From positions 1 through 36,934 of the forward strand of contig CAMAWF010000026.1 in NCBI GenBank assembly GCA_945861895.1: a stretch of 36,934 nt of DNA. The letters run 5' to 3'. Positions 17,155-36,934 of this stretch are shown here, piece after piece. Within the stretch, counting starts at the first letter, position 1. Every line of letters begins with the position of its first letter. The notes beneath the pieces are model-generated. The model made no database searches. It was given only the letters and a program-made list of their open reading frames with translations, and had not been told where the DNA came from. Source of the stretch: Rhizobium sp. Q54 (GTDB lineage Bacteria; Pseudomonadota; Alphaproteobacteria; Rhizobiales; Xanthobacteraceae). The position numbers were made by a program, and so were the translations under genes.

Positions 17155-17176
17155 AGCATGATCCCGAATAAGCCTG

Positions 17177-17249: not shown

Positions 17250-17299
17250 GCGTGCGAAGCCGGTTTCGGCGGGCGAAGGACGACCGGAAAAATTCCTGC

Positions 17300-17316: not shown

Positions 17317-17317
17317 T

Positions 17318-17509
17318 TTATCGTTTTTTGATAATGCCTTTTTTCACTCCCGCCTCGGGGAAAATCCACATCGCCACGATAAAAAATACAGCGATGAACA
17401 GCACAAATTTGTCGAAGTCCGGCCGGATCGGTGACCCGCTCCAGTAGACAAAGCCGAGCGCCACCAGGAGCACCACCACCGAAACGATCGCTTTAACGTC
17501 GGTCGGCAT
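17318..17509 (-). CDS. Small two-helix membrane protein, unknown function
   Basis: A 63-residue protein starting MPTDVKAIV with GGAGA six bases before the ATG. It has two hydrophobic stretches (IVSVVVLLVALGFVYWSG and FVLFIAVFFIVAMWIF) separated by a short polar loop (SPIRPDFDK), and a Lys-rich tail (KKGIIKKR). It is therefore a small inner-membrane hairpin protein. No family is recognised. It lies 29 bases behind the fatty-acid-hydroxylase-type gene on the same strand and is probably cotranscribed with it. Confidence 0.6.
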   Translation of the reverse strand: MPTDVKAIVSVVVLLVALGFVYWSGSPIRPDFDKFVLFIAVFFIVAMWIFPEAGVKKGIIKKR

Positions 17510-17538
17510 GTCCAATCTCCGCCTGTCGCATCAGCCGT

Positions 17539-18309: not shown

Positions 18310-18369
18310 TGCCGACCCACCCTTTGATCCGTAGCGCCAGCGAACGCCCCCGCCGCGCCTTGGCTAATA

Positions 18370-18387
18370 TATCACAAGTTTATCACA
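18370..18387 (-). promoter_or_regulatory. TGTGATA direct repeat upstream of the fatty acid hydroxylase gene
   Basis: On the minus strand TGTGATA occurs twice, exactly eleven bases apart (one helical turn), 61-78 bases before the hydroxylase start, in an AT-rich patch. This phasing suits binding of a regulator or a promoter element. No matching regulator is identified. Confidence 0.3.
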
Positions 18388-18418
18388 CCCGGGCGGCGTT
18401 GCAAATCGCCCCGGCCGT

Positions 18419-18718
18419 TCACCTCGCCTCCAGACTGCGAACCGCCGCCTCGACCTCGGCGCCGTTGAGCCGCCAGTCGTTGTCAAAATTAGCCACGACC
18501 TTTGTCATGAACGGTTTCGAGAGCTCGATGGCCTTGCCGCTATCTCCCAGATAATCCATCAGAATCGCCAACGCGAGCTGCTGCGGGCTTTCGCCCTCAT
18601 AGGTCCATTCGAAGCCAAATTTGGTGAAGCGCTTGACCTCGTAATGTTCGCTGAGTTTCCGCCCATCCACGGTCACAACCAGACCGTCGATGGTGCGTTT
18701 GCCTTCATAGGTCTTCAT
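18419..18718 (-). CDS. DUF6166 family protein
   Basis: A 99-residue cytoplasmic protein beginning MKTYEGKRTIDGLVVTVDGR, with FGFEWTYEGESPQQLALAIL in the middle. This pattern matches small DUF6166 proteins, in which a short beta region is followed by a helix with QLALAIL. The biochemical role is unknown. It follows the GntR regulator by 37 bases on the same strand and may be read through from it. Confidence 0.65.
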   Translation of the reverse strand: MKTYEGKRTIDGLVVTVDGRKLSEHYEVKRFTKFGFEWTYEGESPQQLALAILMDYLGDSGKAIELSKPFMTKVVANFDNDWRLNGAEVEAAVRSLEAR

Positions 18719-18755
18719 AACGAACGTCCTCTTTCACAAGGAACTGCCCCTAAAC

Positions 18756-19484
18756 TTAGACCGATACCGTGGCGCGGGTGAAACTTTCCACATAGTCCAT
18801 CAGCTTGTCGGTCGCGGTGGCGGCCAGCATTGCATCGCCATTGGCGATTGCGCGCGACTGTTCGGCATGCAAGCGCGCGCACAAAGGAAGATCTGCCGCC
18901 TTGCGGTAGTGCATGTACCAGAACCGGCGCGAGAGTCCGCTCAACAGCCGCATCGAGCGTGCAGCGTAATCGTTGTGCGCGGCGCCGATCATCATATGGT
19001 TGAGTTCGCGGTCGAGCCGCATGAAGGCGATGTCGTTATTGTTGTTCGCCGCGTGCTCCATACCTTGTGCGATCTTGAGGAAATTCGTCTTCTGAGCTGC
19101 CGTTGCGCGCTCGGCGCTGGCACGGCCCAGCAATCTTTCGAGTTCGCGGCGCACTTCCAGCACCAGGAGTTGCTGGCGTGGATTTATATCGGACACCAGA
19201 ACGCCCTTGCGCGGTAAGATGATTACCAGGCCTTCGTTCGCCAACCTCTGCAGCGCCTCGCGCACCGGCGTGCGCCCTAGCTTAAATCGGTCGGCAAGCA
19301 GCTGCTCCGAAAGGACAGTGCCTGGCCGTAGCCGCAGCGTGACGATATCCTCCTCGATCTCGCGATATGCCTGCTCGGCGAGCGGCTCGACCGCTCGCTC
19401 TGCACGCGCATTGGATGCCGGCCGTCTTTTGGCGGCGCCGATAGTCCGGCGGTCGGCGCGCATTTTTCGTTTTTGCCTGGGCAT
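18756..19484 (-). CDS. GntR family transcriptional regulator, FCD-type
   Basis: A 242-residue regulator. The ATG at 19484 (MPRQKRKMRADRR) lies 19 bases after the PanB-like gene; the longer frame overlaps that gene. The winged helix spans roughly residues 38-100: AYREIEEDIVTLRLRPGTVL, then LADRFKLGRTPVREALQRLA and LVIILPRKGVLVSD. The C-terminal helical half carries an FCD-like pattern: LEVRRELERLLGRASAE, then MRLDRELNHMMIGAAHN (metal-site Asp/His) and RLHAEQSRAIANGD. Such proteins usually repress a neighbouring catabolic gene, here probably the PanB-like gene. The effector is unknown. Confidence 0.82.
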   Translation of the reverse strand: MPRQKRKMRADRRTIGAAKRRPASNARAERAVEPLAEQAYREIEEDIVTLRLRPGTVLSEQLLADRFKLGRTPVREALQRLANEGLVIILPRKGVLVSDINPRQQLLVLEVRRELERLLGRASAERATAAQKTNFLKIAQGMEHAANNNNDIAFMRLDRELNHMMIGAAHNDYAARSMRLLSGLSRRFWYMHYRKAADLPLCARLHAEQSRAIANGDAMLAATATDKLMDYVESFTRATVSV

Positions 19485-19503
19485 GATTGCCTGGCGCCGC
19501 CGC

Positions 19504-20427
19504 CTAGATCTGCCTGCGCTTGGCGACCATTGCCGAAAATTTTTCATATTCGGCGTCATTGACCGTGTAGGAATGATCGTCGTCAGGAAACTGACCGGCT
19601 TTGACCTCGGCGATATATTGCTTGATGCCGGCGACCGCCACTTCGGTCAGTTTGGAATAGCGCTTGGTGAATTTTGGCTTGAAATCGGTAAATACGCCCA
19701 GCAGATCGTAGCACAATAAAATCTGCCCATCGCAGCCAACTCCGGCGCCGATGCCGATTGTGGGAATGGTGAGCTGCTCGGATATGAGCTTGGCGATCTT
19801 GGCCGGCACCGCCTCGAATTCCAGCATAAAGCAACCGGCGTCCTCGATTGCCAGCGCGTCCTCGAGAATTTTCATTGCAGCATCGGCGGTGCGTCCTTGA
19901 ATCTTGAAGCCACCGAACATTGCTATTGTATGCGGGGTGAGCCCGATGTGCGAGGCGGTCGGGATGCCGGCATCCACCAGCGCGCGCAAGATCGCGGCCT
20001 GCGATTTTCCGCCTTGGGGCTTGACTGCATCGCAGAGCGCTTCTTGCATGAAGCGCGTGGCGTTGATGAGGGCGCGATCGACTGTGTTGTAGCTCTGATA
20101 GGGCATGCAGCCGAGGGTGAAAGTATTCGGCGCGCCGCGGCGAACCGCCTGCGAATGCATGATCATCATGTCCATGCTGGCCGGGATCGTGCTCGGGTGG
20201 CCGTGCGCGACCATGGCGAGGCTGTCGCCGATCACCGCGACATCGACACCAGCCATCTCCGCCCATTTGGCCGAGGTGTAGTCGGGGACCGACATGTAGA
20301 CCATCTTTTCCAGGGTCTTCTTGGAGTCCCGGATTTCGGTGATGGTGCGCTTTTCGCGTTTCGGCGCGGCTTTCGGCTCAGCGGGTGCCGCCTGCGCTGC
20401 TGCGCCGGGCATTTGTTCCTTTGACAT
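19504..20427 (-). CDS. PanB (ketopantoate hydroxymethyltransferase) family protein with altered metal ligands
   Basis: A 307-residue TIM-barrel protein homologous to PanB, which adds a hydroxymethyl group from methylene-THF to 2-oxoisovalerate. Preserved parts are VAVIGDSLAMVAHGH, HIGLTPHTIAMFGGFKIQGR, MLEFEAVP (catalytic Glu) and TIGIGAGVGCDGQILL. PanB's Mg2+ is held by three acidic residues: GDSL Asp is present here, but ADLP is GCMP (Asp to Cys) and KIEGG is KPQGG (Glu to Gln). A ~30-residue Ala/Pro-rich N-terminus is extra. It therefore probably acts on another 2-oxoacid or catalyses a different aldol/lyase reaction. GGAGGAG precedes the ATG. It heads a unit with an FCD GntR regulator; no panC is present. 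Confidence 0.78.
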   Translation of the reverse strand: MSKEQMPGAAAQAAPAEPKAAPKREKRTITEIRDSKKTLEKMVYMSVPDYTSAKWAEMAGVDVAVIGDSLAMVAHGHPSTIPASMDMMIMHSQAVRRGAPNTFTLGCMPYQSYNTVDRALINATRFMQEALCDAVKPQGGKSQAAILRALVDAGIPTASHIGLTPHTIAMFGGFKIQGRTADAAMKILEDALAIEDAGCFMLEFEAVPAKIAKLISEQLTIPTIGIGAGVGCDGQILLCYDLLGVFTDFKPKFTKRYSKLTEVAVAGIKQYIAEVKAGQFPDDDHSYTVNDAEYEKFSAMVAKRRQI

Positions 20428-24866: not shown

Positions 24867-25357
24867 GTCACGGGGGGATATGAGCGGTGAATCGAAAGCC
24901 GAATCATCCTAGTCGGAAAGAAATTCCGCTGCCAGAAAATTGATCGATGAACCGGCTCCGCCACCAGCATTCCGATGTCCGACGAAATGAAACGTCGTAA
25001 GAATTCCTGGCGGCGGGTTGCGGGAACAGGACCAACCCTGGCCAAAACCGGAGAGATTTGGCGCCTCGGAACTGAAACTTTGCGGTCTTACGGAGCGGCC
25101 TGTCGCGATCCTGGCATCTCCCATCTCACTGGAGGCTTTACCGCGTCTGTAATTCGGCAACGTGACAAAGCCTTAAATATCAATTCTAATGAGCCGGCTA
25201 TATTCAGTTCTCTATCCCGCGCAAACCCACGGCCGTGTAGAGCATCGATGCGGAATCTGTGGAGATCGTGAAACTGCTTGTAATTTCGCGATCATATCTC
25301 TAGGTCAACGTTCTGCGGGTGCTTATTGCACGGGCTGATTTGGTGACGTCCTCGATT
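24867..25357. other. ~490-base intergenic region between divergent hydrolase and GntR genes
   Basis: No coding frame here shows recognisable protein features. A minus-strand frame (24909-25160) ends in a Gly/Ala-rich stretch, but I could not match it to a family. An AT-rich patch (25170-25210) and another near 25275-25300 may hold the promoter of the GntR gene. The TGTCTnAGACA motif found at three later promoters was not seen here. Confidence 0.4.
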
Positions 25358-26299
25358 ATGAAACGCCCACTCAAAAAGGCCCGTGTTCCCATTAATCCCC
25401 CCCTCAGCGCGCGCGATGTGGAAGAGGCGCTTGAGGAGCGTATAAGCACGGGCAAATATCCCTTAGGCCAGCGGCTGCCGCCGGTCCGCGACATTGCCGC
25501 GGAATTTGGCACCAGCCCTTCTACGGTCAGCCGCGCTCTGCAAGAGATGATGCGGAGTGGCTGGCTCGAGGTGTATGAGCGGCGTTTCGTGCGTGTCCGC
25601 GATCAGCTTCCGTCGAATGTCGTCCGCAGCGCCGATATTCAGAGATCTGCACGGGCAATTGCTCACAAGTGGAAGCTCAAAGGTGGATCGTATGATGAGC
25701 TGATTGCCACACTGAGTGAGATCGTCGCCGACGTCTTCAAATTGCAAACTGAATTCGTATTCACCGAATGCAACCCGAACGACCTGAACTTTATGGCCGC
25801 GCAACTGGCGCAGGAGTTACCCGACTCCACGCTGAATTGCCAGCTTATCAAGGAACTCGACAAGGATGAATTGGAGCGGGACGGATCCGTAATTCTCGTC
25901 CCTTATTTTCATTATGCCGAGGTCCGTAAACTCGTCGGCGACGCTCTATCAATTGTTCCGATTCACTTCAAACCTAGCGTCGAGACGCTCGACAAGCTGT
26001 TGACCATCAGACCTGGCAGCAACATTCTGGTTTTTGGCCGCGATCAGCGTTCGGTCCAGCGATTGTCTCTCATGGTAAGAGAATATGTCGATGCGAAAAT
26101 TACAGGAATAACTATCGATGAGCGAGAGAAGCTGCCAAAACTGGCAAAATCTGCGGACGCAGTCGTTACGGTTTCCACGGCACTGGAGACGGTGCCAAGA
26201 CTTCCTCCGATAAAGCAACTTATCGAGGTTCGTTTTGAACTTGAGACATCGTTAGGAAACAGGTTGAAGAACGGACCCGTCAAGTCCGCCGCCCCATGA
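25358..26299 (+). CDS. GntR family regulator with uncharacterised C-terminal ligand domain
   Basis: A 313-residue regulator. The winged helix occupies about residues 15-85: VEEALEERISTGKYPLGQRL, then VRDIAAEFGTSPSTVSRALQ and EMMRSGWLEVYERRFVRV. The next ~220 residues do not show the FCD or UTRA patterns I know; alternating hydrophobic strands (GSVILVPYFHYAEV, GSNILVFGRDQRSVQRL, AKITGITIDERE, ADAVVTVSTALETV) suggest an alpha/beta periplasmic-binding-like fold. It is the only regulator in the right 12 kb, so it is the prime candidate for the repressor acting on the palindromes at 27341, 31772 and 32935. The ATG at 25358 is used; a GTG at 25319 is possible. Confidence 0.75.
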   Translation: MKRPLKKARVPINPPLSARDVEEALEERISTGKYPLGQRLPPVRDIAAEFGTSPSTVSRALQEMMRSGWLEVYERRFVRVRDQLPSNVVRSADIQRSARAIAHKWKLKGGSYDELIATLSEIVADVFKLQTEFVFTECNPNDLNFMAAQLAQELPDSTLNCQLIKELDKDELERDGSVILVPYFHYAEVRKLVGDALSIVPIHFKPSVETLDKLLTIRPGSNILVFGRDQRSVQRLSLMVREYVDAKITGITIDEREKLPKLAKSADAVVTVSTALETVPRLPPIKQLIEVRFELETSLGNRLKNGPVKSAAP

Positions 26300-26332
26300 T
26301 GAAGTTAGTTCACCGCAAGGCGCGCTGCCGCG

Positions 26333-27304
26333 TCAGGATGCTTGGTCTTGACAGGCCGCACAACACGCCGAAATTCGCGTAGCCGGCACACCATGCATCA
26401 CCCCTCGCAAGACACCTGAGATCACATCGATTTCCGCGGGCCGCGTTGATAGCGGCGGTCTGATGACCAGGCCGTTTTGCTCGTCGGCTCCCACCAACAG
26501 TCCGCGTTCGCATAGTTTGCGCTTCAACTGTCCTGCCGACGTGCCTGGTTGGAAGCGGACATTCGCCGACAGCACACCGAACCGGATTGCCGCGATCTGC
26601 TGGCACGCCGCCTGCACAGCATTCATCCGCTCGCTAAAATATTTCGCGAGATCACGACCGTGCTCGATCAATTGCTGCCGCTCCACCGAAACGACGACAC
26701 CCTGAACGAGTGCCATGATCCCGGCAGGCACCGATGCCGCCCGAATTTGCAGATTGGACGAACCGCGCTCGACGGCGCGCCTGGACATAAGCAGGGCGCC
26801 AAAAGATTCGCCGGCGGCAAGAGTGCTGCCGAGCACGATCAGGTCCGGCTTGCTGCGCCAGGCCGGGCTGACGAGCCACGCGCCCGACCGTCCGATCGTT
26901 TCGTCCTCCAGGGCTATCGTAATACCGCCGATGAATTCAGGCTCGCCCGCCGCGGCATTGACAACGCGCGGGCCTTGCCCGTTGCCGCCTATCGTCGCCG
27001 CGATTTGCTTTGCGATCGGCACCATCGCCTCTGCGCCCGTATCGAGTGCCACGCACTTATATTCCCGATGCAGTTTCGACAGCGTTCGCATCAAGCCGCG
27101 CTTATCGATGGCTTCGGGTGCCGGCCTGTCGTAACCGAGCAGTGCAGTCGCGGGCGAGGCGAGAGCGTCGAGATAAAGAAACCCGTTTTGCATTTGCACG
27201 GTGCAGCGCCGCGCTTCAACAATTTGATCGGCGATACTGTGCGCAGCCATTCCGTCATTTAAGAAATGGCGTGTCGCGCTCTCGGTCGGCGCGGTGAAGT
27301 TCAT
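26333..27304 (-). CDS. Compact class III aminotransferase-like protein lacking the PLP lysine
   Basis: A 323-residue protein, about 100 residues shorter than normal class III aminotransferases. The fold is traceable: FLYLDALASPATALLGYDRP, VALDTGAEAMVPIAKQIAAT (cofactor phosphate region), LEDETIGRSGAW (PLP Asp region), PDLIVLGSTLAAGESFGALL, then LCERGLLVGADEQNGLVIRP and PLSTRPAEIDVISGVL. In active enzymes the fourth block reads LAKGLGGG with the Schiff-base Lys; here it is LGSTLAAG, so the Lys aligns with Ser. The frame is otherwise clean. It may be a non-enzymatic, sensory or subunit protein, or a decayed enzyme. It is divergent from the hydantoinase-like gene and shares its operator region. 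Confidence 0.72.
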   Translation of the reverse strand: MNFTAPTESATRHFLNDGMAAHSIADQIVEARRCTVQMQNGFLYLDALASPATALLGYDRPAPEAIDKRGLMRTLSKLHREYKCVALDTGAEAMVPIAKQIAATIGGNGQGPRVVNAAAGEPEFIGGITIALEDETIGRSGAWLVSPAWRSKPDLIVLGSTLAAGESFGALLMSRRAVERGSSNLQIRAASVPAGIMALVQGVVVSVERQQLIEHGRDLAKYFSERMNAVQAACQQIAAIRFGVLSANVRFQPGTSAGQLKRKLCERGLLVGADEQNGLVIRPPLSTRPAEIDVISGVLRGVMHGVPATRISACCAACQDQAS

Positions 27305-27313
27305 AACTTGCTA

Positions 27314-27341
27314 TTGCCTTGCGCTTGGAGTTTGTTATTCT
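27314..27341 (+). promoter_or_regulatory. Promoter of the hydantoinase operon (-35 TTGCCT, 16-bp spacer, -10 TATTCT)
   Basis: TTGCCT at 27314-27319 and TATTCT at 27336-27341 form a sigma70-type pair with a 16-base spacer. The operator palindrome begins at the last base of the -10. Promoters at 31738 and 32897 have the same layout. Confidence 0.45.
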
Positions 27342-27364
27342 GTCTCAGACAAGGTACAGAATAA
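27335..27364. promoter_or_regulatory. Operator A: nested palindromes TGTCTCAGACA within TTATTCTG...CAGAATAA
   Basis: TGTCT-C-AGACA (27341-27351) is a perfect 5-1-5 palindrome. Around it, TTATTCTG (27335-27342) and CAGAATAA (27357-27364) form perfect 8-base inverted arms. The site lies between the divergent aminotransferase-like and hydantoinase-like genes and recurs at 31772 and 32935, so it is a likely repressor site. Confidence 0.6.
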
Positions 27365-27399
27365 AAGCCGGTTGCTGCGGTTTGTCAATGGAGCCATGA

Positions 27400-29010
27400 A
27401 TGACCGAACGCCTGGATCTCACGATCAAGAACGGGACTGTCGTGCTGGGTACCGGTCAATACAAGGTGTCCGTCGGCATCAAAGGAGGCAAGATCGCGGC
27501 CCTGGCGCCGGATGAGTTTCTTCCTCCCGCAAAAGAGACCATCGATGCAAAGGGCCTGCATGTGCTTCCCGGCATTGTGGATAGCGAGAGTCATCCCGGC
27601 TGCTACGTCCCTTTTCGCTATGATATGACGACGGAATCGCGCGCGGCGGCCTGCGCGGGCATCACGACCTGGGGAATTCAGGCGCCTTCGACGCGTCTCG
27701 GCACAGAGCCGTTCCAGGAAGTGGTTTCGGCGAAGGACGTCGTATCCTTCAAGAACTGCTTCAATTCGGCGGTCGAAATCATCGAAAATGTCTCGATGGT
27801 CGATTGCTATCTCACCTACATGCTCGAGACCGACGAGCAGGCCAACGAGATTCCCTACTATGCGGAGGAGCATGGCGTAACGTCTTACAAGCTTTATCTG
27901 CAGACTCGCGGCATGAAGGGTATGCGGGCAGATGAGGACAGCAATTGGCCCTCGCGCCGCGCTGGCCTCGGCACCGGCATTGACGACGGCACGGTCTATC
28001 TCGTGATGGAGCACGTTGCCCATCTCGGGTATCCGGCCATCTGCCACATCCATCCGGAGAATTGGGAAATAGCGCGCATCTTCGAGGAGCGGTTGCGTAA
28101 GGCGGGGCGCACCGACTTTGGGGCCTGGACCGACCGCTCGCCGGACTTTCTCGAGGCCCAACACGTTCACGCGTACAGCTATCTTGCGCGTCAGACGCCC
28201 GGCCACGTGCGACTTTATCTGCAGCACGCAACGACCAAGCTGACCTTCGATGAAATCGCCAAGGCGCGCGCCGAGGGGCTTGAACTCTACGCGCAGACAG
28301 GCCCTGCGTGGCTCTGGCTTGAGCCGCAATTCGGCTGGCGCATCAATGTGCCGCTGCGCCGACGTGACAATATTGAGGCGCTCTGGGTGGCGCTTGCCGA
28401 TGGCACGGTTGATGTCGTTGGTTCCGACCATGTGGTCGGCTGGGAGCCGACTTCTTATGAAGAAATGTACAACCCGAACATCTGGTCCTGCCGCACCGGA
28501 TTTTCGCGCGTTGAGATGATGCTTCCGGCGCTGCTCTCGGAGGGCGTGAACAAGGGCCGGCTGTCGATCGAGCGCGTCGTGCAGGTCGCCTGCGAGAATC
28601 CGGCCAAGACCTCGGGCATCTGGGGCCGAAAAGGCTAGCTGCTGCCGGGCTTCGATGCCGACGTTGTCCTCGTAGACCTGGGCCGCGAAGTTAAAGTGAC
28701 CAAGGATCACATCAATACGCGATCCGGCTGGTCGCTGATGGAGGGCCACACATTCACGGGCTGGCCGGTCAAGACCATCCTGCGCGGTAAGGTCACGGCC
28801 GAATGGGCCGACAACAGCCCTGGCATGCGTCCGGTCGGCGAGCCCAGAGGTAAATATCTAAAACGTCAACTGGGTAAGCATAAACCCGGAAGCATGGAGG
28901 TCACGAGCCCGGTGCGCGTCAGCCGTACTGATCGCTGGCTCGCCGATCCTTATCAGCGGCCAGGCTTCTGTGCCGATACCCTGCGCTACACCAAGGCAAG
29001 AGGTGCGTGA
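27400..29010 (+). pseudogene. Hydantoinase/dihydropyrimidinase-like cyclic amidohydrolase with in-frame TAG
   Basis: A 536-codon frame interrupted by TAG at 28636-28638. Homology continues across it: GIWGRKG, stop, LLPGFDADVVLVDLGREVKV, as in the usual C-terminal beta-sandwich of hydantoinases (KG.I.PGADAD). The frame ends exactly at the start of the next gene, so the full frame is ancestral. CAG to TAG is the simplest cause. Metal-site residues: the carboxylated Lys in TSYKLYLQ, His in CHIHPEN, His in YLQHATTK and Asp in VGSDHVVG are present. The first motif reads DSESH instead of DxHxH. The family opens cyclic amides (hydantoins, dihydropyrimidines, allantoin). GGAG precedes the ATG. A truncated 412-residue product would retain the barrel but lose the C-terminal sandwich. 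Confidence 0.75.
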
Positions 29011-29012
29011 TC

Positions 29013-29786
29013 ATGCCGACGAAGACCGTTGCAAGAAACACCTATGTCTGGGACGACATTCTCCCGGAACGCGATCGCAAGGTATTCGAGGCTGCCGGCT
29101 GGGGTCAGCGCGCCGGCTACGGCAAGCGGCCGGCGATCTTTGTGATCGACATCAACTATAATTTTTGCGGTGACAAGCGCGAACCTATTCTCGAGTCGAT
29201 CAAGCGATGGCACTTCTCGTGTGGCGAGCGCGCATGGGATGGGATCGATGCGGTGCAGAAAATTCTCAAAGTCGCGCGCAGAAAGCGGCTGCCAATCATC
29301 TACACGACAAATCCGCGTCGAGAGGACGGGTTCGACCTTGGAATCTGGGGGCTGAAGGGATCGCGCTCCGAGGAGAAGGTTGATGTGCTTGGCCACAAGG
29401 GCAACGAGATTGTCGCCGAAGTGGCGCCTGAGCCCGACGATATCTTCATCGAAAAACGCAAGCCCTCGGCTTTCTTCGGCACGCCGCTGATGAGCTACCT
29501 CAACAATATGCAGGCGGACTCGCTGATACTTACCGGCACAACCACGAGTGGTTGCGTCCGGGCAACCGCGGTCGACGCTCTCAGCTACGATCTCAAAGTC
29601 ACGATTCCGGAGGAAGCGGTCTTCGATCGCGGCGAGCTGTCGCACAAGGCGACGCTGTTCGACCTCCACATGAAATACGTGGATGTGACGAATCTAGAGG
29701 ACGTGCTGACCTACCTCGAAAGACTTGAGGCCGGGCTATTCGACGAGACCTACCCGCCTGCGAGAGCGCGGTCGGTGACTCGCTGA
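29013..29786 (+). CDS. Isochorismatase-fold cysteine hydrolase (N-carbamoyl/ureido amidase-like)
   Basis: A 257-residue cysteine amidohydrolase. The catalytic triad is visible: Asp in FVIDINYNF, Lys in FIEKRKPSAFFGTPL and Cys in GTTTSGCVRATAVDAL. Relatives include N-carbamoylsarcosine amidase, RutB, biuret hydrolase and triuret hydrolase. Following a hydantoinase it most plausibly hydrolyses the ring-opened N-carbamoyl (ureido) product or releases ammonia and CO2 from it; this is inference from context. The ATG at 29013 starts two bases after the hydantoinase frame stop and has AGAGG upstream; a GTG at 29007 is less likely. The frame is intact. Confidence 0.85.
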   Translation: MPTKTVARNTYVWDDILPERDRKVFEAAGWGQRAGYGKRPAIFVIDINYNFCGDKREPILESIKRWHFSCGERAWDGIDAVQKILKVARRKRLPIIYTTNPRREDGFDLGIWGLKGSRSEEKVDVLGHKGNEIVAEVAPEPDDIFIEKRKPSAFFGTPLMSYLNNMQADSLILTGTTTSGCVRATAVDALSYDLKVTIPEEAVFDRGELSHKATLFDLHMKYVDVTNLEDVLTYLERLEAGLFDETYPPARARSVTR

Positions 29787-29805
29787 AACCAGGGGGGTGA
29801 GAGCC

Positions 29806-30408
29806 ATGGCGATCGTTCGGGAGATCGTTGTTCCCGCCAAGGAGGGGCGCGGCCTGCATATGAAAGCCGGCCAGCTTCTGGACATTGTAGACCTCGATGG
29901 TCAGCAGGTCGGCGATCTTGTTGCCTGGCGCCGTGACGATCCGAGCGAATACATGTCGCCGACACATACCGTGTCTTGCAACACCTCGATCATGCTGCGG
30001 AAGGGATCGCGACTCTTCACCAACCATCGCAATCCGATCTTTTCGATCGTGCGTGACGACGTCGAGCGGCACGACATTATCGTCCCGTGTTGCGATCATG
30101 AACGTTTCGCGCATGATTTCGGAATACACGATCATCCGCATTGCCTGGGCAATCTGATCCAGGCGCGCGATCTTCTCGGTGAAAAGGTCGAGCTTCACGG
30201 CGAGTGGGCCTGGAACGTGTTTATGCACAACCACGTTACGCCGGAAGGCAAGGTGGTTACCGACGCCGCAGTTCATCCGGCAGGCTCGACGATCACGCTA
30301 CGCGCGGAAATGGATGCGGTCGTGTTGCTGTCGGCTTGTCCGCAGGATCTAACGCCGTGCAACGCATTTAACCCAACGCCGATGAAGCTCGTTCTGCGAG
30401 ACGCCTAA
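29806..30408 (+). CDS. DUF1989 family protein (urea carboxylase-associated type)
   Basis: A 200-residue protein starting MAIVREIVVPAKEGRGLHM (ATG at 29806, AGGGGGG about nine bases upstream; a GTG at 29797 is possible). DUF1989 marks are AGQLLDIVDLDGQQVGDLVA, SCNTSIMLRKGSRLFTNHRN, IIVPCCDHERFAHDFG with its Cys/His cluster, and WAWNVFMHNHVTPEGKV. DUF1989 proteins accompany urea carboxylase/allophanate hydrolase genes, and a pair of them forms carboxyguanidine deiminase. Here there is one copy without urea carboxylase nearby, so a different deiminase or hydrolase step on a ureido compound is likely. It is in the operon with the amidase and DUF1185. Confidence 0.8.
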   Translation: MAIVREIVVPAKEGRGLHMKAGQLLDIVDLDGQQVGDLVAWRRDDPSEYMSPTHTVSCNTSIMLRKGSRLFTNHRNPIFSIVRDDVERHDIIVPCCDHERFAHDFGIHDHPHCLGNLIQARDLLGEKVELHGEWAWNVFMHNHVTPEGKVVTDAAVHPAGSTITLRAEMDAVVLLSACPQDLTPCNAFNPTPMKLVLRDA

Positions 30409-30442
30409 AACACTTTTCGAATCGCATGAATGGAGATTTTGT

Positions 30443-31015
30443 GTGGAAGTCCGAAAGATATACGCTCAGGTCGAGGAGACATTCAGCGAGGCGGGACAAA
30501 AATCTGACGAGCCGTTGCGGAAGGTGGCGGTTGTCGCGGTGCTGAAGAATCCCTTTGCCGGGCGCTATGTCGAGGATTTGAAGCCGCTGACCGACGCGAG
30601 CGAAGCGCTCGGCAAGCGGATTGCAGCACTCGCCGCGCAATATATGCATCCGCGTGAGGTAGAGAGTTACGGCAAGGCAGGTCTCGTCGGAACTTCCGGC
30701 GAGCAGGAACACGCGGTTGCGATGCTCACGACGGTTTTAGGCAATGTGATGCGCGATGCGGCGGGCGGCGGCAAGGCATGGATTTCCTCAATGACCAAGC
30801 GGGTGGCGCCCGGCGCCACGATCGATGTGCCGCTCGCGCACAAGGACGCGCTTTACGTGCGTTCTCATTATGACGGCATCAGCGTGACCCTGCATGATGC
30901 ACCGCTGCCGGACGAAATCGCGATCATTGTTGGCTATGCCAATCGCGGGCGTCTCAATCACCGTATCGGTGGTCTGGCAAAACAGGACATCAAGAAGCTC
31001 GACGGACTGACCTGA
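30443..31015 (+). CDS. DUF1185 (amino acid synthesis family, PF06684) protein
   Basis: A 190-residue protein with a GTG start at 30443, seven bases after GGAG. Typical segments are VAVVAVLKNPFAGRYVEDL, EVESYGKAGLVGTSGEQEHA, ISSMTKRVAPGATIDVPLAH, KDALYVRSHYDGISVTLHDA and ADEIAIIVGYAN-like PDEIAIIVGYANRGRLNHRIGG. The family is annotated as amino acid synthesis, but no reaction is firmly known to me. It ends the operon hydantoinase-amidase-DUF1989-DUF1185, and is convergent with the aldolase-like gene nine bases away. Its repeated linkage to amidohydrolases here suggests a role in N-heterocycle breakdown (inference). Confidence 0.8.
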   Translation: MEVRKIYAQVEETFSEAGQKSDEPLRKVAVVAVLKNPFAGRYVEDLKPLTDASEALGKRIAALAAQYMHPREVESYGKAGLVGTSGEQEHAVAMLTTVLGNVMRDAAGGGKAWISSMTKRVAPGATIDVPLAHKDALYVRSHYDGISVTLHDAPLPDEIAIIVGYANRGRLNHRIGGLAKQDIKKLDGLT

Positions 31016-31024
31016 AGCGGCAGC

Positions 31025-31693
31025 CTAAAAGGCGCCTACGTGCTGCAGCCATGCCCAAATACGATCTGACTCGGCGTCGTACCAGTGCTTGCGCGCTTCC
31101 AACTCTTTCCTGCTAAAGGAAATCTTCTTATCCGGCGTGAGCCTGTCGAATGTGCAGCGCTCTTCCAGACTCCACATACGCGCCGCGGCCTGACCGAGCG
31201 TGCTCCCGACCGTAAGGACTCCATTGCCGCGAAGAATGAGCGCGTCGGACGAGCCAAGGGATTCTCCAGCTCGCGTCCCCATCTCCGGCTTGTGAATCAG
31301 ATCCGTCTCGTCGAGGACAGCGATCGTTTCCGTGATGCCCCCAAAACCATGCCGGATCGGAGGAACGGACGCTATGCTCTGGATCGCCGATGAAGCCGGC
31401 GCGTGCGTGCGGCAGATCGCATGCACATCGCTGCGAGATTTGTATATGCCGAGATGGAGAAATACTTCGATCGGCCGATTTGAGGCTACGCCTGACTGCA
31501 CGGAGCCGCTGCTATTACAGTGCAATAAATCGGTTGGCTGCTGATGGAGAAAGTGTGGGCGCGTCGGCGTGATCAGCAAGCCGTCTTCGGTACGGACACT
31601 GACATGGCCGAAGCCATACATATAACCGAGCCGGGCGAACGCGCGGGCGGCGATCACGATCTCCTCGCGCTGTCGCAAATCGTGCTGACTCAT
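31025..31693 (-). CDS. Class II aldolase/adducin family protein with incomplete metal site
   Basis: A 222-residue protein (ATG at 31693, GAGG five bases upstream; the frame extends to a TTG at 31753). Family segments are ARAFARLGYMYGFGHVSVRT, GLLITPTRP, RPIEVFLHLGIYKSRSDVHA and ALILRGNGVLTVGSTLGQAA. Active class II aldolases bind zinc by HxH and a later His. Here the first motif is CRTHAP (one His lost to Arg) and the second is RGNG instead of (N/H)HG, leaving one of three His plus the Glu. It may be a decarboxylase- or lyase-like branch of the family or inactive. It is divergent from the DUF5591-like gene across operator B. Confidence 0.75.
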   Translation of the reverse strand: MSQHDLRQREEIVIAARAFARLGYMYGFGHVSVRTEDGLLITPTRPHFLHQQPTDLLHCNSSGSVQSGVASNRPIEVFLHLGIYKSRSDVHAICRTHAPASSAIQSIASVPPIRHGFGGITETIAVLDETDLIHKPEMGTRAGESLGSSDALILRGNGVLTVGSTLGQAAARMWSLEERCTFDRLTPDKKISFSRKELEARKHWYDAESDRIWAWLQHVGAF

Positions 31694-31737
31694 CGCATCC
31701 TCGCGAACGATGCGGCCCGCTTGGACCAGCTTGCCCC

Positions 31738-31765
31738 TTGTCAGGCAATGCAAAAATCATATAGT
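31738..31765 (+). promoter_or_regulatory. Promoter of the DUF5591-like gene (-35 TTGTCA, 16-bp spacer, -10 TATAGT)
   Basis: TTGTCA at 31738-31743 and TATAGT at 31760-31765 form a good sigma70-type pair with a 16-base spacer. Operator B begins six bases after the -10, matching the arrangement at the hydantoinase promoter. Confidence 0.5.
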
Positions 31766-31770
31766 GTTTT

Positions 31771-31785
31771 CTGACTGAGACAAGG
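31771..31785. promoter_or_regulatory. Operator B: CTGACTGAGACAAGG
   Basis: This matches operator A (CTGTCTCAGACAAGG) at 13 of 15 positions, including the AGACAAGG half. The left half-site has one mismatch (TGACT for TGTCT). It sits between the divergent aldolase-like and DUF5591-like genes, directly before the latter's ribosome-binding site AAGGGG. Confidence 0.55.
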
Positions 31786-31789
31786 GGCA

Positions 31790-32837
31790 ATGAGCATGGT
31801 CGCGGTTGTGGACAGGGCTCTTCGCATATCGGAGTCGAAGCAAAAAATTCTTCCGCCCTTCCAGTTGGATGAATCCCTGTGTCTTTATTCGCCGCAGGAC
31901 AATATCGACTCGCTCAAGCACAGGCGGGTTGCTCACTGGCTCAATTTCGTCACCAAACGTTATGTACCCCGGCTGCCTGCCCAAGGCGCCGGTGCGAATT
32001 CTGCTTCTGATGCCGTGTACCAAGACAAAACCTTATCCGTTCAGCACAGAGCACAAGCGCATCAATCAGCGTCTTCATGACACCGGATTCCGTCCGGTCG
32101 GACGCCATCCGCTGCCGAAAGAATTGATGGATAGGCTGGAGCCCAAATACACGCCGGAAGTTCTCGATCTTTCTCCACTGGGCAATCGTAAGGGCGTCGT
32201 CATCCATCGTGTGGTGATTTCCGAGCCGCTTGCTTTCGTGCCGTACGAGCATATCGCGACATACGAAGGCCGGCGTTCGCCGTCGGCCGCATACGACGAC
32301 CCCGGACTGTTCGAAAATCGCGGCAACGCTGTCTCGCCGTGGCGGTCCGATTTTACGGCGACACGTATCTCCGATACACGCTGGAAATGGGGGAAGTCGG
32401 AACTGAAAGCCTATGTGCAAATGCACAACGTGATGGCCGAGAAGCTCGCCGAGGCGATCAAGAATACCGCGAGGTATTATACCCACCGGATCGCCTGGGT
32501 CGCGCCCGGTCTCACGCACCGTAGTTTCGTTCTCGGGCGCGGCGAGAGGGCGGCGCATAATGTGAGGGCGACCCGCAAGGCCGGCGATGAAAAGCTCGCT
32601 TTCGTCGGCGCCAACGACCGGCTCCCAGATCCATTGAAGATCCAATGCCTACCAAGGCTCGAGGATTGCCAGAAAGCGATCGCGCGGTTGGCAAAGCGCC
32701 TGAACAAGCCGAAATCTCGCGTCGGCGGCATCTATTCGCGCGGCGGCGGTGATGCGACCCCGCTCGCGCTTCCAGAACTTCTGGATGTGCTTGTCAGGCA
32801 CATCCGCTCGTCAAAGAAGCCGAGCGCCAGGACATGA
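31790..32837 (+). pseudogene. DUF5591-like protein (related to the C-terminal domain of archaeal ArcS/TGT) with a frameshift
   Basis: The natural start is ATG 31790 with AAGGGG upstream. The first frame gives SLCLYSPQDNIDSLKHRR and AHWLNFVTKRYVPRLPA. At the C-run 31980-31982 homology jumps to the next frame, KAPVRILLLMPCTKTKPYPF, and stays open to 32837. Removing one C restores a protein of about 348 residues. The segments LLLMPCTKTKPYPFSTEHKR and VVIHRVVISEPLAFVPYEHI resemble the DUF5591 domain of archaeosine synthase (LLPCS..KPYS.S.SH... then VHEV..TSPLGVVPRE). The rest (KWGKSELKAYVQMHNVMAEK, THRIAWVAPG) is conserved-looking but unassigned. A tRNA-modification role in this catabolic setting would be surprising. 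The frameshift may be real or a sequencing error. Confidence 0.55.
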
Positions 32838-32896
32838 AGGGCAGCGCTGTGCTCTTGATGACTTCGAATTGAGCAATCGATGTCCGAAATAGAGCC

Positions 32897-32946
32897 TTGC
32901 AATGCCAAACTAGCTCTCATAGCCTACTGTCTCTTGTCTAAGACAG
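32897..32946 (+). promoter_or_regulatory. Promoter and operator C upstream of the NMT1-type importer
   Basis: TTGCAA (32897-32902) and a weak -10 around TAGCCT (32920-32925) are followed by TGTCT-A-AGACA (32935-32945), a perfect 5-1-5 palindrome. The wider string CTTGTCTAAGACAGAAAATAG aligns with the reverse complements of operators A and B. AGGAG of the binding-protein gene follows downstream. Confidence 0.55.
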
Positions 32947-32980
32947 AAAATAGTGCCGTCTAACGCAGGAGATCAGGCCC

Positions 32981-34009
32981 ATGTCAGGATTTCTGCAACG
33001 CTTATCACTCGCATTGTTCGCCGTTTTGGCGCTCTGCTCGGCCAGTTTCGCGCAAGCCAAGCCGCCGGTGCCCATCAAGTTCAGTTTGGACTGGAAGTTC
33101 GAAGGTCCGGCCGCCGGCTTCCTGTTCGCTGCCGAGCGCGGATATTTCAAATCGGAAGGTTTGGACGTGACAATCGACACCGGAAGCGGTTCGACGGGCG
33201 CCGTGACCCGCGCCGCCTCCGGCGCGTACGACATTGCATTCGCCGATGTGAATTCGATGATCGAGTTCAACGTCAAGAATCCGGACAAGGCGTTACAGGC
33301 TATCTTTATGCTCTACAACCGTCCGCCCTTCGCGTTGATCGCCCTGAAAAAGAGCGGCATCAATGATCCGAAGCAGGTTGTCGGTCGCACGCTCGGTGCC
33401 CCGATCTTTGACGCGCCGCGCAAGCTTTTCCCCGCGCTGGCGCAGGCCATCGGCATCGACCCTTCGCAGGTGAAATGGCAGACAATGGATCCGCCGCTGC
33501 GCGTTCCGATGCTGGTGCGTGGCGACGTCGATGCGATCACCGGTTTCGACTTCCTGCGGCTTACTCTTCGAGAACTGGGCGAAACACCGGACAAAATCAA
33601 CGTCTTCCATTATTATGATTATGGACTTGCGCTTTACGGCAATGCGCTGATGGTTTCGGAGAAAGTATCGAAAGAGAAACCCGAGGCGTTGAAGGGTTTC
33701 ATCCGCGCGGTGATCAAGGGATGGCAGGATGCGATTGCCGATCCGAAGGCCGGGGCTGCGCTTGTTAAGAAGTACGACGCGCTTGTCAACGAACAGGTCG
33801 AGCTTGATCGGTTAAACATGGTGCTAAACAATAATATCGTGACCGACGAAACGAAAACCAATGGCATCGGCGGCATTGATAACGCGCGCATGACAAAAGC
33901 AATCGATCAGGTCACGCTTGCTTTTGCTCTGCCGAAGAAACTGACGGTGAAGGAGGTGTTCAACGACGCATTTCTTCCGCCGGCAGCTCAGCGCAAAATC
34001 AAAAGATAA
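32981..34009 (+). CDS. ABC transporter solute-binding protein, NMT1/THI5 family
   Basis: A 342-residue secreted binding protein. The signal peptide spans about 25 residues (MSGFLQRLSLALFAVLALCS, cleavage near FAQA). The mature start KPPVPIKFSLDWKFEGPAAG is typical of pyrimidine/riboflavin-type NMT1 proteins, followed by GYFKSEGLDVTIDTGSGSTG, AFADVNSMIEFN and NVFHYYDYGLALYGNALMVS. AGGAG lies before the ATG. It is the first gene of an importer operon with an ATPase and a permease, under operator C. Members of this branch import aminopyrimidines, riboflavin or related rings, consistent with the amidohydrolases nearby. The ligand is inference. Confidence 0.87.
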   Translation: MSGFLQRLSLALFAVLALCSASFAQAKPPVPIKFSLDWKFEGPAAGFLFAAERGYFKSEGLDVTIDTGSGSTGAVTRAASGAYDIAFADVNSMIEFNVKNPDKALQAIFMLYNRPPFALIALKKSGINDPKQVVGRTLGAPIFDAPRKLFPALAQAIGIDPSQVKWQTMDPPLRVPMLVRGDVDAITGFDFLRLTLRELGETPDKINVFHYYDYGLALYGNALMVSEKVSKEKPEALKGFIRAVIKGWQDAIADPKAGAALVKKYDALVNEQVELDRLNMVLNNNIVTDETKTNGIGGIDNARMTKAIDQVTLAFALPKKLTVKEVFNDAFLPPAAQRKIKR

Positions 34010-34024
34010 ACCCGAGGAGAAGAT

Positions 34025-34810
34025 GTGCCGACGGTCTTCATCGAGGTCAATGAAGCCAGCTTGGCTTACGGAGAAGACGATCAGCTGGTGCTGGACAAGA
34101 CGACACTGTCGATCCAGAAAGGCGAATTCGTAGCGATCGTTGGCCCGAGCGGCTGCGGCAAGTCCTCGCTGCTCAAAATGGTCTCAGGTCTGATCTTACC
34201 TTCTTCCGGCACCGTCACGGTTGCCGGAGAGAAGGTGGACCGGCCGCTGTCCCAGGTCGGGATGGCATTCCAAAATTCGATCCTGTTGCCGTGGCGCACC
34301 GCGCTCGACAACGTCATGCTGCCGTTGGAGATCGTCGCCGGGCATCGGCATCGCGTTCGCGCGGAACGGCCCGCCTATGAACGCAAAGTCTCGGCGCTGC
34401 TTGCCGATGTCGGTCTGAAGGGGGTCGAGCATCTCTATCCCTGGCAGCTATCGGGCGGCATGCAACAAAGAGTGAGTCTTTGACGCGCCCTGATTCACTC
34501 GCCCGAATTGCTGCTGCTCGACGAGCCTTTCGCGGCTCTCGACGCCTTCACGCGGGAGGAACTGTGGGACAATCTCCAGCAACTCTGGCTCGACAACCGG
34601 TTCACCGCGATACTGGTAACCCACGACCTGCGCGAGGCCGCATATCTGGCCAATACGATCTATGTTATGAGCCGGCGCCCGGGACGGCTGATCGCCCGGC
34701 GGGAAAACCCGCTTCCACGGCCGCGCACGCAAGAGGCAAGCTTCTCCGCGCCCTTTGTTGAAATCGTCCACGAGCTTCGCGGGCGGATCGAGCGGACGAG
34801 AACCACATGA
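34025..34810 (+). pseudogene. NitT/TauT-type ABC transporter ATPase with in-frame TGA
   Basis: A 262-codon frame from a GTG at 34025 (GAGGAGA four bases upstream) to a stop that overlaps the permease start. TGA at 34481-34483 interrupts it directly after the signature: LSGGMQQRVSL, stop, RALIHSPELLLLDEPFAALD. Relatives usually have Cys or Ala there (VSICRALIH), so TGC or TGT to TGA is the likely change. Walker A GPSGCGKSS, Q-loop FQNSILLPWR, Walker B ELLLLDEPFAALDA and switch His in ILVTHDLREA are all otherwise intact. Without readthrough the 152-residue product lacks Walker B and the importer could not work unless another ATPase substitutes. Confidence 0.8.
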
Positions 34811-35592
34811 CTGCCAAACGCCGAAAGAAAACCGTCTGGCTCTCATCGAAGTTCATCTTGCCCTCGGTCACGACTGTCGCCTTTTTCATACTTTGGGAAA
34901 CGACCACCGCGGTATTCGAGATTCCATCATTTCTTGTGCCGGCACCGAGCGAGGTGCTGGTGACGACGTGGGTATACCGCGCCCCGATCTGGATGCATGC
35001 CTATCAAACTTTATTTACGACGCTGGTCGGGCTCGGCGTTGCGGTGGTCATCGGCATCATACTGGGCGTTGCGATCGGTTCCTCGCAGAAGATGTATGAG
35101 GCGCTCAATCCTTTGCTGGTGGGCTTTAACAGCATTCCCAAAGTGGCCTTCGTCCCGGTGTTCGTACTGTGGTTTGGCATCGGTACCGTTCCAGCTATTC
35201 TGACGGCGATCGTGATCTCGTTCTTCCCGATTGTCGTAAATGTTGCGGCCGGCCTAGCCACCGTCGAACCCGAATTGCGCGACGTTCTCCGTTCGCTTGG
35301 CGCCACCCGGCGCGATATCCTCCTCAAGGTCGGGTTCCCGCGCTCGCTGCCCTATTTCTTTGCGGCGCTGAAGATTTCCGTCACGCTCGCCTTTGTAGGC
35401 TCGGTTCTTTCAGAGACCGTCGCCTCCAACAAAGGTATCGGCTATCTCATGATGTCGGCGAGTACTAACCTGAACATGCAATTGGTGTTTGCCGGTTTAA
35501 TCGTCACCGCCGTGATGGGCATCGCACTATATTTTGCGATTGATTTGTTCGAGCGCCGGTTACTTCATTGGGCGTTGAGAGCAAATAAATAA
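34807..35592 (+). CDS. NitT/TauT-type ABC transporter permease
   Basis: A 261-residue inner-membrane protein with about six hydrophobic segments. The start ATG overlaps the ATPase stop (ATGA), so translation is coupled. Family marks are IPSFLVPAPSEVLVTTWVYR, VGFNSIPKVAFVPVFVLWFG and the EAA coupling loop ELRDVLRSLGATRRDILLKV, followed by GFPRSLPYFFAALKISVTLA. It is of normal length with no lesion. It forms the membrane channel for the binding protein at 32981. Confidence 0.9.
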   Translation: MTAKRRKKTVWLSSKFILPSVTTVAFFILWETTTAVFEIPSFLVPAPSEVLVTTWVYRAPIWMHAYQTLFTTLVGLGVAVVIGIILGVAIGSSQKMYEALNPLLVGFNSIPKVAFVPVFVLWFGIGTVPAILTAIVISFFPIVVNVAAGLATVEPELRDVLRSLGATRRDILLKVGFPRSLPYFFAALKISVTLAFVGSVLSETVASNKGIGYLMMSASTNLNMQLVFAGLIVTAVMGIALYFAIDLFERRLLHWALRANK

Positions 35593-35815: not shown

Positions 35816-35992
35816 TTCACCGTCAAATCTTGTGCGATTGCACAAAACCGCGCCGATGTATCCCGTCTGATCCAAATTCCTCCGTATAGCCAATGCCTTC
35901 ACGGTTGGCACGATCTTTGCTGCGATACAGCATAATCGGCCAGGGGCAAGCTACGCACGACCGCGCCTGGCCCAAGCAAAGGAGCTTTGGCG

Positions 35993-36934
35993 ATGGGCAT
36001 TTTGAAGCCCGCTCGCGGCACCGGCCGCAAGATTTCGCGGCGCGATATTCTTAAACACGGCGCTGCGACTGCCGGCGCGCTCGCCCTTACCGACGCCATC
36101 CGCGTCGCCTTTCCGGGCGGCGTTTCAATCGCCGAGGCGGCGACCGGAGGTTACCAAGGCATCGCTCGGCTTTATTGCGCTCACCGATGCGGCCCCGCTT
36201 TTTGTCGCCAAGGAAAAAGGCCTCTTCGCCAAATTCGGCATGCCCGATGTCGAGGTGCAGAAGCAGGCGTCATGGGGCACGACGCGCGACAATCTTGTGC
36301 TCGGCTCGGAGGGCAACGGCATCGACGGGGCGCATATCCTGACACCGATGCCTTATCTGATCTCGGCCGGCAAGGTGACGCAGAACAACGTGCCGACGCC
36401 GATGTACATCCTGGCGCGGCTCAATCTCGACAGCCAATGCATCTCGGTCGGCAAGGAGTACGCCGGTCTCAGGATCGGCCTCGACACCAGGCCCTTCAAG
36501 GAAGCGCTGGAAAAGAAGAAGAGGTCAGGCAAGGCCGTGAAAGCCGCGATGACCTTCCCGGGCGGCACGCACGATTTGTGGATTCGCTATTGGCTCGCCG
36601 CCGGCGGCATCGACCCCGACAAGGACATCGAGACCATCACCGTGCCGCCGCCGCAAATGGTGGCGAACATGAAGGTGGGAACGATGGATTGCTTCTGCGT
36701 GTGCGAACCGTGGAACCTGCAGCTTATCCATCAAGGCATCGGCTACACCGCGATCACCACCGGCGAGCTCTGGAACAAGCATCCGGAAAAGTCGCTCGGC
36801 ATGCGCGCCGCCTGGGTGGATAAGAATCCGAATGCGGCGAAGGCGCTGTTGATGGCCGTTATGGAGGCCCAGCAATGGTGTGACAAGCCAGAGAATCACG
36901 AAGAACTGGCCGTCATCATGGCCAAGCGGCAGTG
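35993..36934 (+). pseudogene. NrtA/CmpA-like (NitT/TauT) ABC substrate-binding protein, frameshifted, cut by right edge
   Basis: The ATG at 35993 follows AAAGGAG by eight bases. The N-terminus carries a twin-arginine signal (GRKISRRDILKHGAATAGAL). Near 36143-36147 the frame must shift: before it EAAT, after it EVTKASLGFIALTDAAPLFV in the next frame, which stays open to the window end. The second frame has clear nitrate/bicarbonate-binding-protein features: AKEKGLFAKFGMPDVEVQKQ, SWGTTRDNLVLGSEGNGIDG, TFPGGTHDLWIRYWLAAGGI and FCVCEPWNLQLIHQGIGYTA. A one-base insertion or two-base loss in ACCGGAGG explains it. The protein normally has about 430 residues, so roughly the last quarter is outside the window. 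Nitrate, nitrite or cyanate is the likely ligand class. Confidence 0.75.

What the first reader, a model, noticed from the sequence alone, without database searches (positions are those of the whole stretch)
25358..35592. Candidate undescribed regulon for breakdown and uptake of a cyclic ureide or pyrimidine-like compound
A single GntR-type regulator is followed by a PLP-lysine-free aminotransferase-like protein, a hydantoinase-like protein, an isochorismatase-fold amidase, DUF1989, DUF1185, an atypical class-II-aldolase-like protein, a DUF5591-like protein and an NMT1-type importer. Ring opening (hydantoinase), amide cleavage (amidase) and ureido processing (DUF1989) make a logical route. At least four members (Lys-free aminotransferase, DUF1185, metal-poor aldolase, DUF5591-like) have no known place in hydantoin, Rut or reductive pyrimidine pathways. 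The gene calls are seen in sequence; the pathway is inference.
Basis: partly seen in the sequence, partly recalled or inferred. Interest (0 to 1): 0.75.

Follow-up and report, generated by a model that had tools for sequence, protein, structure and literature searches.

The report
Decaying co-regulated heterocycle breakdown cluster
A bacterium carries a small, apparently jointly switched set of genes that looks built to import and break open a ring-shaped nitrogen compound, but several of its genes are damaged; one of them belongs to a little-known protein family that elsewhere sits in a conserved breakdown gene cluster of unknown substrate.

Summary
The gene calls hold, but three reading frames are broken: the hydantoinase-like gene has an in-frame TAG (28636-28638) and lacks a metal-ligand His, the DUF5591-like gene is frameshifted near 31960, and the importer ATPase has an in-frame TGA (34481-34483). 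The regulon idea gains support: TTCTGTCTNAGACAAG lies in three control regions of the cluster (0, 0, 1 mismatch), with no other site within one mismatch in the 3.77-Mb genome (the pattern was drawn from these sites). "One pathway" is partly supported: relatives of the hydantoinase and of the N-carbamoylsarcosine-amidase-like enzyme are adjacent in at least 12 of 49 plasmid records, and DUF5591 sits beside a similar importer in 2 of 18 loci; DUF1989, DUF1185 and the Lys-free aminotransferase had no match in the loci of either module that I tested. Unexpectedly, 17 of 18 DUF5591-like loci elsewhere carry a conserved catabolic cluster (HpaB and flavin monooxygenases, 8-oxoguanine-deaminase- and allantoinase-like enzymes, amidase). 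Ten of ten such proteins tested pass Pfam's DUF5591 cut-off (an archaeosine-synthase domain), matching its first third only. Best reading: a co-regulated, partly decayed cluster for import and hydrolytic opening of a pyrimidine/ureide-like ring.

The parts
25319..26299 (+). GntR-type regulator; no Pfam match outside the DNA-binding domain
   Evidence: PF00392 55.7 bits, residues 32-89; in plasmids one record matched, over residues 33-89 only
26333..27304 (-). class III aminotransferase-like protein, short, without the PLP lysine
   Evidence: PF00202 41.9 bits, profile 236-397 of 403; Lys to Ser; no plasmid match; 45 of 198 other genomes of the order give only weak hits, 22-31% identity
27338..27353 (+). 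operator-like site TTCTGTCTCAGACAAG in the aminotransferase/hydantoinase divergent gap
   Evidence: 0 mismatches
27400..29010 (+). hydantoinase-like gene, interrupted by in-frame TAG at 28636-28638
   Evidence: best solved relative L-hydantoinase 1gkr, 2e-37
29007..29786 (+). isochorismatase-fold amidase, nearest N-carbamoylsarcosine amidohydrolase
   Evidence: PF00857 97.9 bits; 26st 1.5e-33 and 1nba 1.4e-25
29797..30408 (+). DUF1989 protein
   Evidence: PF09347 148.7 bits; below the UAAP2 cut-off (128.6 against 284.7)
30443..31015 (+). DUF1185 / AA_synth protein
   Evidence: PF06684 227.7 bits; second copy, 66%, on contig C103
31025..31753 (-). class II aldolase-like protein
   Evidence: PF00596 100.3 bits; nearest solved 4xxf and 2z7b
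31769..31784 (+). operator-like site TTCTGACTGAGACAAG in the aldolase/DUF5591 divergent gap
   Evidence: 1 mismatch
31796..32837 (+). DUF5591-like gene, frameshifted between about 31955 and 31978
   Evidence: two tblastn pieces in different frames; conserved N-terminus of relatives; PF17884 25.7 bits, cut-off 26, 28.3 over the frame
32933..32948 (-). operator-like site TTCTGTCTTAGACAAG upstream of the importer
   Evidence: 0 mismatches
32981..34009 (+). NMT1-type substrate-binding protein
   Evidence: PF09084 133.6 bits; nearest solved 3ix1, formylaminopyrimidine-binding protein, 2.8e-16
34025..34804 (+). importer ATPase with in-frame TGA at 34481-34483
34807..35592 (+). importer permease
   Evidence: PF00528 98.4 bits

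Best explanation
The region is a locally co-regulated catabolic cluster made of two modules that occur separately elsewhere. Module A (hydantoinase-like plus N-carbamoylsarcosine-amidase-like enzyme) would open a cyclic ureide/imide and then split off the carbamoyl or amide group. Module B (NMT1-type importer plus DUF5591-like protein) would bring in a pyrimidine-like heterocycle and act on a side group. A repressor, most simply the neighbouring GntR protein, would bind the 16-bp motif in three control regions and release them when the substrate is present. In this genome the set is decaying: hydantoinase, DUF5591 protein and importer ATPase are interrupted, and the aminotransferase-like protein has lost its PLP lysine. 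Shown: genes, breaks, shared motif, recurrence of the module pairs. Inferred: binding by GntR, repression, substrate, order of steps.
For: Motif: 0, 0, 1 mismatch in three intergenic gaps, next best site in the whole genome 2 mismatches; shared-motif search in the three gaps gave 2 total mismatches, against a minimum of 7 in 300 shuffles. Module A adjacency in at least 12 of 49 plasmid records, including alpha- and betaproteobacteria and haloarchaea. Module B in Pseudooceanicola and Maritimibacter, DUF5591-SBP-ATPase-permease in the same order, 66/47/53/52-53%. A hydantoinase-like gene near a similar importer in Azospirillum (SBP 40, ATPase 53, permease 57%) and, with the isochorismatase, in Shinella (ATPase 46, permease 37%). 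Solved-structure neighbours. Breaks.
Against: No locus holds modules A and B together. The motif was derived from the three sites, so the genome scan is circular for them; at up to 3 mismatches the genome has 20 matches against 23 for the reversed control pattern, the window shuffles reach 3 matches in 2 of 100, and the shorter core TGTCTNAGACA at up to 2 mismatches is not enriched in the window (7, expected 7.8). No site lies upstream of gntR. An importer of equal similarity (46/51/53%) sits elsewhere in the same genome without DUF5591 shown there, so importer similarity near 50% is weak evidence. The breaks could be assembly errors.
Confidence: 0.55

Rival explanations
1. The set is intact in the living organism, and the TAG, TGA and frameshifts are assembly or sequencing errors.
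For: The genome is a 194-contig assembly and no second copy of the locus is at hand. Operator-like sites are sharp, and isochorismatase, DUF1989, DUF1185, SBP and permease frames are open.
Against: Four breaks lie within about 9 kb (27.4-36.2 kb). With a cut on downstream coding score that I chose after seeing the data (0.6), the coding scan gives 2 such in-frame stops in the 37-kb window, both here, and 3 in 301 kb of 16 other stretches of the genome. The hydantoinase has also lost a metal ligand and the aminotransferase-like protein its lysine, which read errors do not explain well.
Confidence: 0.25
2. One reading: one complete, undescribed regulon in which all members, including DUF1989, DUF1185, aldolase and Lys-free aminotransferase, serve one ureide/pyrimidine route.
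For: Shared motif in all three control regions.
Against: No linkage of DUF1989, DUF1185 or the aminotransferase-like protein to either module in 33 loci tested; elsewhere DUF1185 sits next to a different amidohydrolase in 4 of 5 loci viewed, and the one DUF1989 locus viewed is a urea-carboxylase-associated set. Broken genes.
Confidence: 0.12
3. Chance neighbours in a catabolic region; no shared function.
For: The whole contig is rich in unrelated catabolic genes; modules A and B are found apart elsewhere.
Against: Three control regions share a 16-bp motif.
Confidence: 0.15

Closest known systems
Archaeosine synthase ArcS (catalytic segment, PF17884/DUF5591)
   Same: Ten of ten DUF5591-like relatives tested score over the Pfam cut-off at profile positions 1-46; the segment PCTKTKPYPxSxEH is shared by 17 of 17 aligned rows, which resembles the PCxxxKPYxxSxxH motif that I recall for ArcS.
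   Different: Only about the first third of the domain matches; ArcS models score 19-27 bits against cut-offs of 440-600; bacterial, in a catabolic setting; no solved structure matches the profile or the model fold (0 of 85 matches at E<=0.001).
Hydantoinase / dihydropyrimidinase
   Same: Nearest solved proteins are hydantoinases; TIGR02033 142.6 bits.
   Different: Far below the family cut-off (393.25 bits); H-x-H is E-S-H; in-frame stop.
N-carbamoylsarcosine amidohydrolase
   Same: Nearest solved proteins; about half of the query length matched at 34-38% in annotated actinobacterial plasmid genes of that name.
   Different: Below BiuH and RutB cut-offs (48.3/370, 45.5/377.95); paired with a hydantoinase-like gene, not with creatinine enzymes as far as the viewed loci show.
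ThiXYZ-type NMT1 importers
   Same: SBP nearest to formylaminopyrimidine-binding protein 3ix1.
   Different: Ligand unknown; ATPase interrupted.
DUF5591 catabolic cluster of Alphaproteobacteria (described here)
   Same: Contains the DUF5591-like protein and, in two genomes, the same importer order.
   Different: Uses HpaB and flavin monooxygenases, deaminases, PuuE-like and amidase genes instead of hydantoinase and isochorismatase.

Membership tests
ArcS / PF17884 (DUF5591) | score above the Pfam gathering cut-off | tested here: met
   10 of 10 relatives 27.2-34.5 bits against 26; the window piece alone is borderline, 25.7 or 28.3
ArcS / PF17884 (DUF5591) | match over the whole 150-position domain | tested here: not met
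   profile positions 1-46 at most in all ten
ArcS / PF17884 (DUF5591) | archaeosine synthase equivalog model | tested here: not met
   26.2-26.6 bits (L017) and 19 bits (window) against 440-600
ArcS / PF17884 (DUF5591) | transfer of lysine to a preQ0 nitrile | not testable with these tools
   activity known for archaeal ArcS (PMC11298593, passages seen)
D-hydantoinase / dihydropyrimidinase | family model cut-off (TIGR02033, 393.25) | tested here: not met
   142.6 bits
D-hydantoinase / dihydropyrimidinase | H-x-H metal motif | tested here: not met
   E-S-H in the window, H-x-H in 10 of 10 relatives; K164, H218, H276 and D343 are invariant in the alignment
D-hydantoinase / dihydropyrimidinase | uninterrupted reading frame | tested here: not met
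   TAG at 28636-28638
N-carbamoylsarcosine amidohydrolase (isochorismatase superfamily) | superfamily domain | tested here: met
   PF00857 97.9 bits against 27
N-carbamoylsarcosine amidohydrolase (isochorismatase superfamily) | substrate | not testable with these tools
   nearest solved relatives only
Rut pathway (RutB) | TIGR03614 cut-off 377.95 | tested here: not met
   45.5 bits; the other Rut genes were not searched for
Class III aminotransferase | PLP lysine and full-length domain | tested here: not met
   Lys to Ser in 3 of 3 alignments; profile 236-397 of 403
Urea-amidolyase-associated DUF1989 (UAAP2) | TIGR03424 cut-off 284.7 | tested here: not met
   128.6 bits; PF09347 itself is met
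Class II aldolase | metal-binding histidines | tested here: inconclusive
   read by eye as changed in two of three places from recalled positions; no alignment was made
GntR regulon | shared operator in the controlled promoters | tested here: met
   three sites, 0/0/1 mismatch; binding by this GntR protein not tested

The most novel reading that the evidence does not exclude
The DUF5591-like proteins are a bacterial offshoot of archaeosine synthase that works in catabolism: with guanine/8-oxoguanine-deaminase-like, allantoinase-like, amidase, decarboxylase-like and two flavin monooxygenase genes they would form a pathway that degrades 7-deazaguanine-type bases (preQ0, archaeosine base, preQ1 or queuine) or other nitrile/amidine heterocycles. 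The window regulon would be a second version in which hydantoinase and N-carbamoyl amidase replace the oxygenase branch.
Probability: 0.15. Interest if true: 0.85.

Novelty: new variant of a known kind. Interest (0 to 1): 0.5.

Why it matters
If right, a domain known only from archaeal tRNA modification has a life in bacterial catabolism, and the conserved cluster around it makes the fate of its substrate testable in cultured strains (Kaistia, Martelella, Bradyrhizobium, Parvibaculum, Rhizobium). I found no catabolic route for 7-deazapurines in the library searched (searches; listings only). The window itself offers a compact operator that can be tested by binding, and a case of a regulon caught in decay.

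Tried and rejected
Same-system search by the DUF5591-like protein: relatives are found, but without module A. Search for the conserved cluster in the window's own genome: only an HpaB-like gene (53%, contig C27) and a flavin-monooxygenase-like gene (51%, C29), in other settings, so the cluster is not shown there. Same-genus copies: none for DUF5591 in 6 and 11 (Pfam model) other same-genus genomes, none for the hydantoinase at 1e-60 in the 6. Hydantoinase in 397 other genomes of the phylum: none at 1e-40, but at most 4 candidates per genome were scored. Phage relatives of DUF5591: none. Solved relatives of DUF5591: none by profile or fold (model pLDDT 87.8). The TAL-effector chains listed for the SBP I take as chance over a short stretch. 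The promoter and terminator scan was no better than chance (7 against 5.0, 7 against 10.4). The C5 copy of the core palindrome lies by housekeeping-type genes, lacks the outer bases of the motif and was not counted. I considered the motif a wider regulon and rejected it.
Full report
What is there. ORF and Pfam calls confirm the listed genes, in these units: gntR (+), aminotransferase-like (-), hydantoinase-like/isochorismatase/DUF1989/DUF1185 (+), aldolase-like (-), DUF5591-like (+), and SBP/ATPase/permease (+). The window is all of contig C26 of a 3.77-Mb, 194-contig genome.

Broken genes. The hydantoinase-like frame meets TAG at 28636-28638. With X at the stop, relatives align through it (query residues 4-463, 1-507 and 4-468 in three loci), and the coding score stays high on both sides (0.34 and 0.58). 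Its metal motif reads E-S-H where 10 of 10 relatives have H-x-H. The ATPase has TGA at 34481-34483 and aligns to two relatives through it at 53%. For the DUF5591-like gene, relatives share a conserved N-terminus; in the window this lies in one frame (31796-31978) and the remainder in another (31965-32831). The second NMT1-type gene after 35987 also changes frame. In 16 other stretches of the genome (301 kb) the same scan lists 18 stops with coding on both sides, most of which look like ordinary gene ends; with a downstream-score cut of 0.6, chosen after seeing the data, 3 remain, against 2 in the window. A third listed window stop, 34007, is the ordinary end of the SBP gene.

Operator. Reading the three gaps showed one motif, TTCTGTCTNAGACAAG: 27338-27353 (0 mismatches), 32933-32948 minus strand (0), 31769-31784 (1). 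In the whole genome the next best site has 2 mismatches; up to 3 mismatches there are 20 matches and 23 for the reversed control, so no wider regulon is shown. In shuffled windows 2 of 100 reach three matches at that tolerance. A search for any shared 16-mer in the three gaps gave 2 total mismatches; 300 shuffles had a minimum of 7. The inner palindrome TGTCTNAGACA occurs at three places in the genome, two of them here, close to the 2.3 expected from composition; at up to 2 mismatches it is not enriched in the window. It was absent from the 83 of 88 loci that were not stretches of this window. No site lies upstream of gntR. I take the local motif as real and its reader as probably, but not certainly, the GntR protein.

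Module A. Of 49 plasmid records with a hydantoinase-like match at 1e-30 (27-35% identity; all listed), 12 have an isochorismatase-like match directly beside it and 2 more within 5 kb. This is a lower bound, because only 60 of 447 isochorismatase records were listed, and near-identical records are counted (two Shinella, four Haloferax). Settings differ: haloarchaeal loci add CoA transferase, hydroxymethylglutaryl-CoA lyase and isopropylmalate-dehydratase-like genes; Shinella adds an NMT1-type importer and a class III aminotransferase. So the pair is a recurrent tool, not proof of a hydantoin substrate. Several viewed hydantoinase loci lack a clear neighbouring isochorismatase relative, and in Methylobacterium it is about 9 kb away.

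Module B and the conserved cluster. Sixteen loci came from the genome scan (16 of 40 pattern-bearing stretches), one from 148 other family genomes and one from plasmids (1 of 72,556 records); a class search added 2 strong hits in 384 other genomes and 2 marginal ones. With the Rhizobium ACO-34A genes as reference (50% identity or more), 17 of 18 loci hold at least 4 of 9 partner genes, L014 none: SBP-fold protein 17, flavin monooxygenase 16, amidase 16, PuuE-like 16, HpaB 15, amidohydrolase 15, 8-oxoguanine-deaminase-like 14, class III aminotransferase 10, aldehyde dehydrogenase 9 of 18. Flanks were cut at 10 kb or by contig ends, so absences are uncertain. The deaminase passes its NCBIfam cut-off (618.3 against 532); the HpaB and PuuE models are matched below theirs (348.4 against 480.2; 318.2 against 424.6). 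The SBP-fold protein resembles 4,5-dihydroxyphthalate decarboxylase as I recall it; no library call confirms this. Only Pseudooceanicola and Maritimibacter (L002, L003) share the window's DUF5591-importer order. None of these 18 loci gave a hydantoinase, DUF1989 or DUF1185 match, and the sole isochorismatase hit is weak, 26%; a more distant isochorismatase-family gene lies near the Rhizobium cluster.

DUF5591 relation. Ten of ten relatives pass PF17884, at profile positions 1-46 of 150 only. Archaeal control genomes ring for the family. A confident model has no significant PDB match. ArcS adds lysine to the nitrile of preQ0, down to the nucleoside (PMC11298593; passages). That chemistry next to deaminase- and allantoinase-like genes is the basis for the deazaguanine idea, which is inference.

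Orphans. DUF1185 elsewhere is next to an amidohydrolase gene in 4 of 5 loci, not the window's type; its structure paper suggests amino-acid metabolism from genome context (PMC2954203; passages). The aminotransferase-like protein and the C-terminal part of GntR have no close relatives in what was searched.

Literature. DUF5591 is in no paper of the library, DUF1185 in 3, DUF1989 in 3; no listing showed this cluster (listings only). Most subscription papers are not held.

Verdict. A real, locally co-regulated but partly broken catabolic cluster; the substrate class is plausible and unproven; the stronger lead is the conserved DUF5591 cluster outside the window.

Noticed in passing
L002-L013, L015-L017, L019, L021: Conserved alphaproteobacterial catabolic cluster around a DUF5591-like protein (HpaB, flavin reductase, amidase, PuuE-like, two amidohydrolases, flavin monooxygenase, SBP-fold protein, aminotransferase, aldehyde dehydrogenase).
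   Followed up: partly
window 1508-2755 (-): AllG-type protein (PF06545, oxamate carbamoyltransferase subunit, 254 bits), a ureide-pathway gene, near a type III glutamine synthetase-like gene and an NMT1-type SBP.
   Followed up: no
window 35987-36932 (+): Second NMT1-type (NMT1_2) protein with a Tat-like start, frame changes near 36160; cut by the contig end.
   Followed up: partly
window 4411-20427: Other catabolic genes: D-2-hydroxyacid dehydrogenase, Rieske oxygenase, PhyH, two DHDPS-like genes, a branched-chain-type importer, MocR-type regulator, ketopantoate hydroxymethyltransferase.
   Followed up: no
L053 (G000 contig C103) 9815-10384: Second DUF1185 copy, 66% identical, beside xanthine-dehydrogenase-type genes; a third, 42%, on C27 (L051 15750-16271).
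   Followed up: no
L023, L077, L106: Haloarchaeal plasmid operons with isochorismatase, hydantoinase-like, CoA transferase, HMG-CoA-lyase-like and isopropylmalate-dehydratase-like genes: a recurrent pathway of unknown substrate.
   Followed up: no
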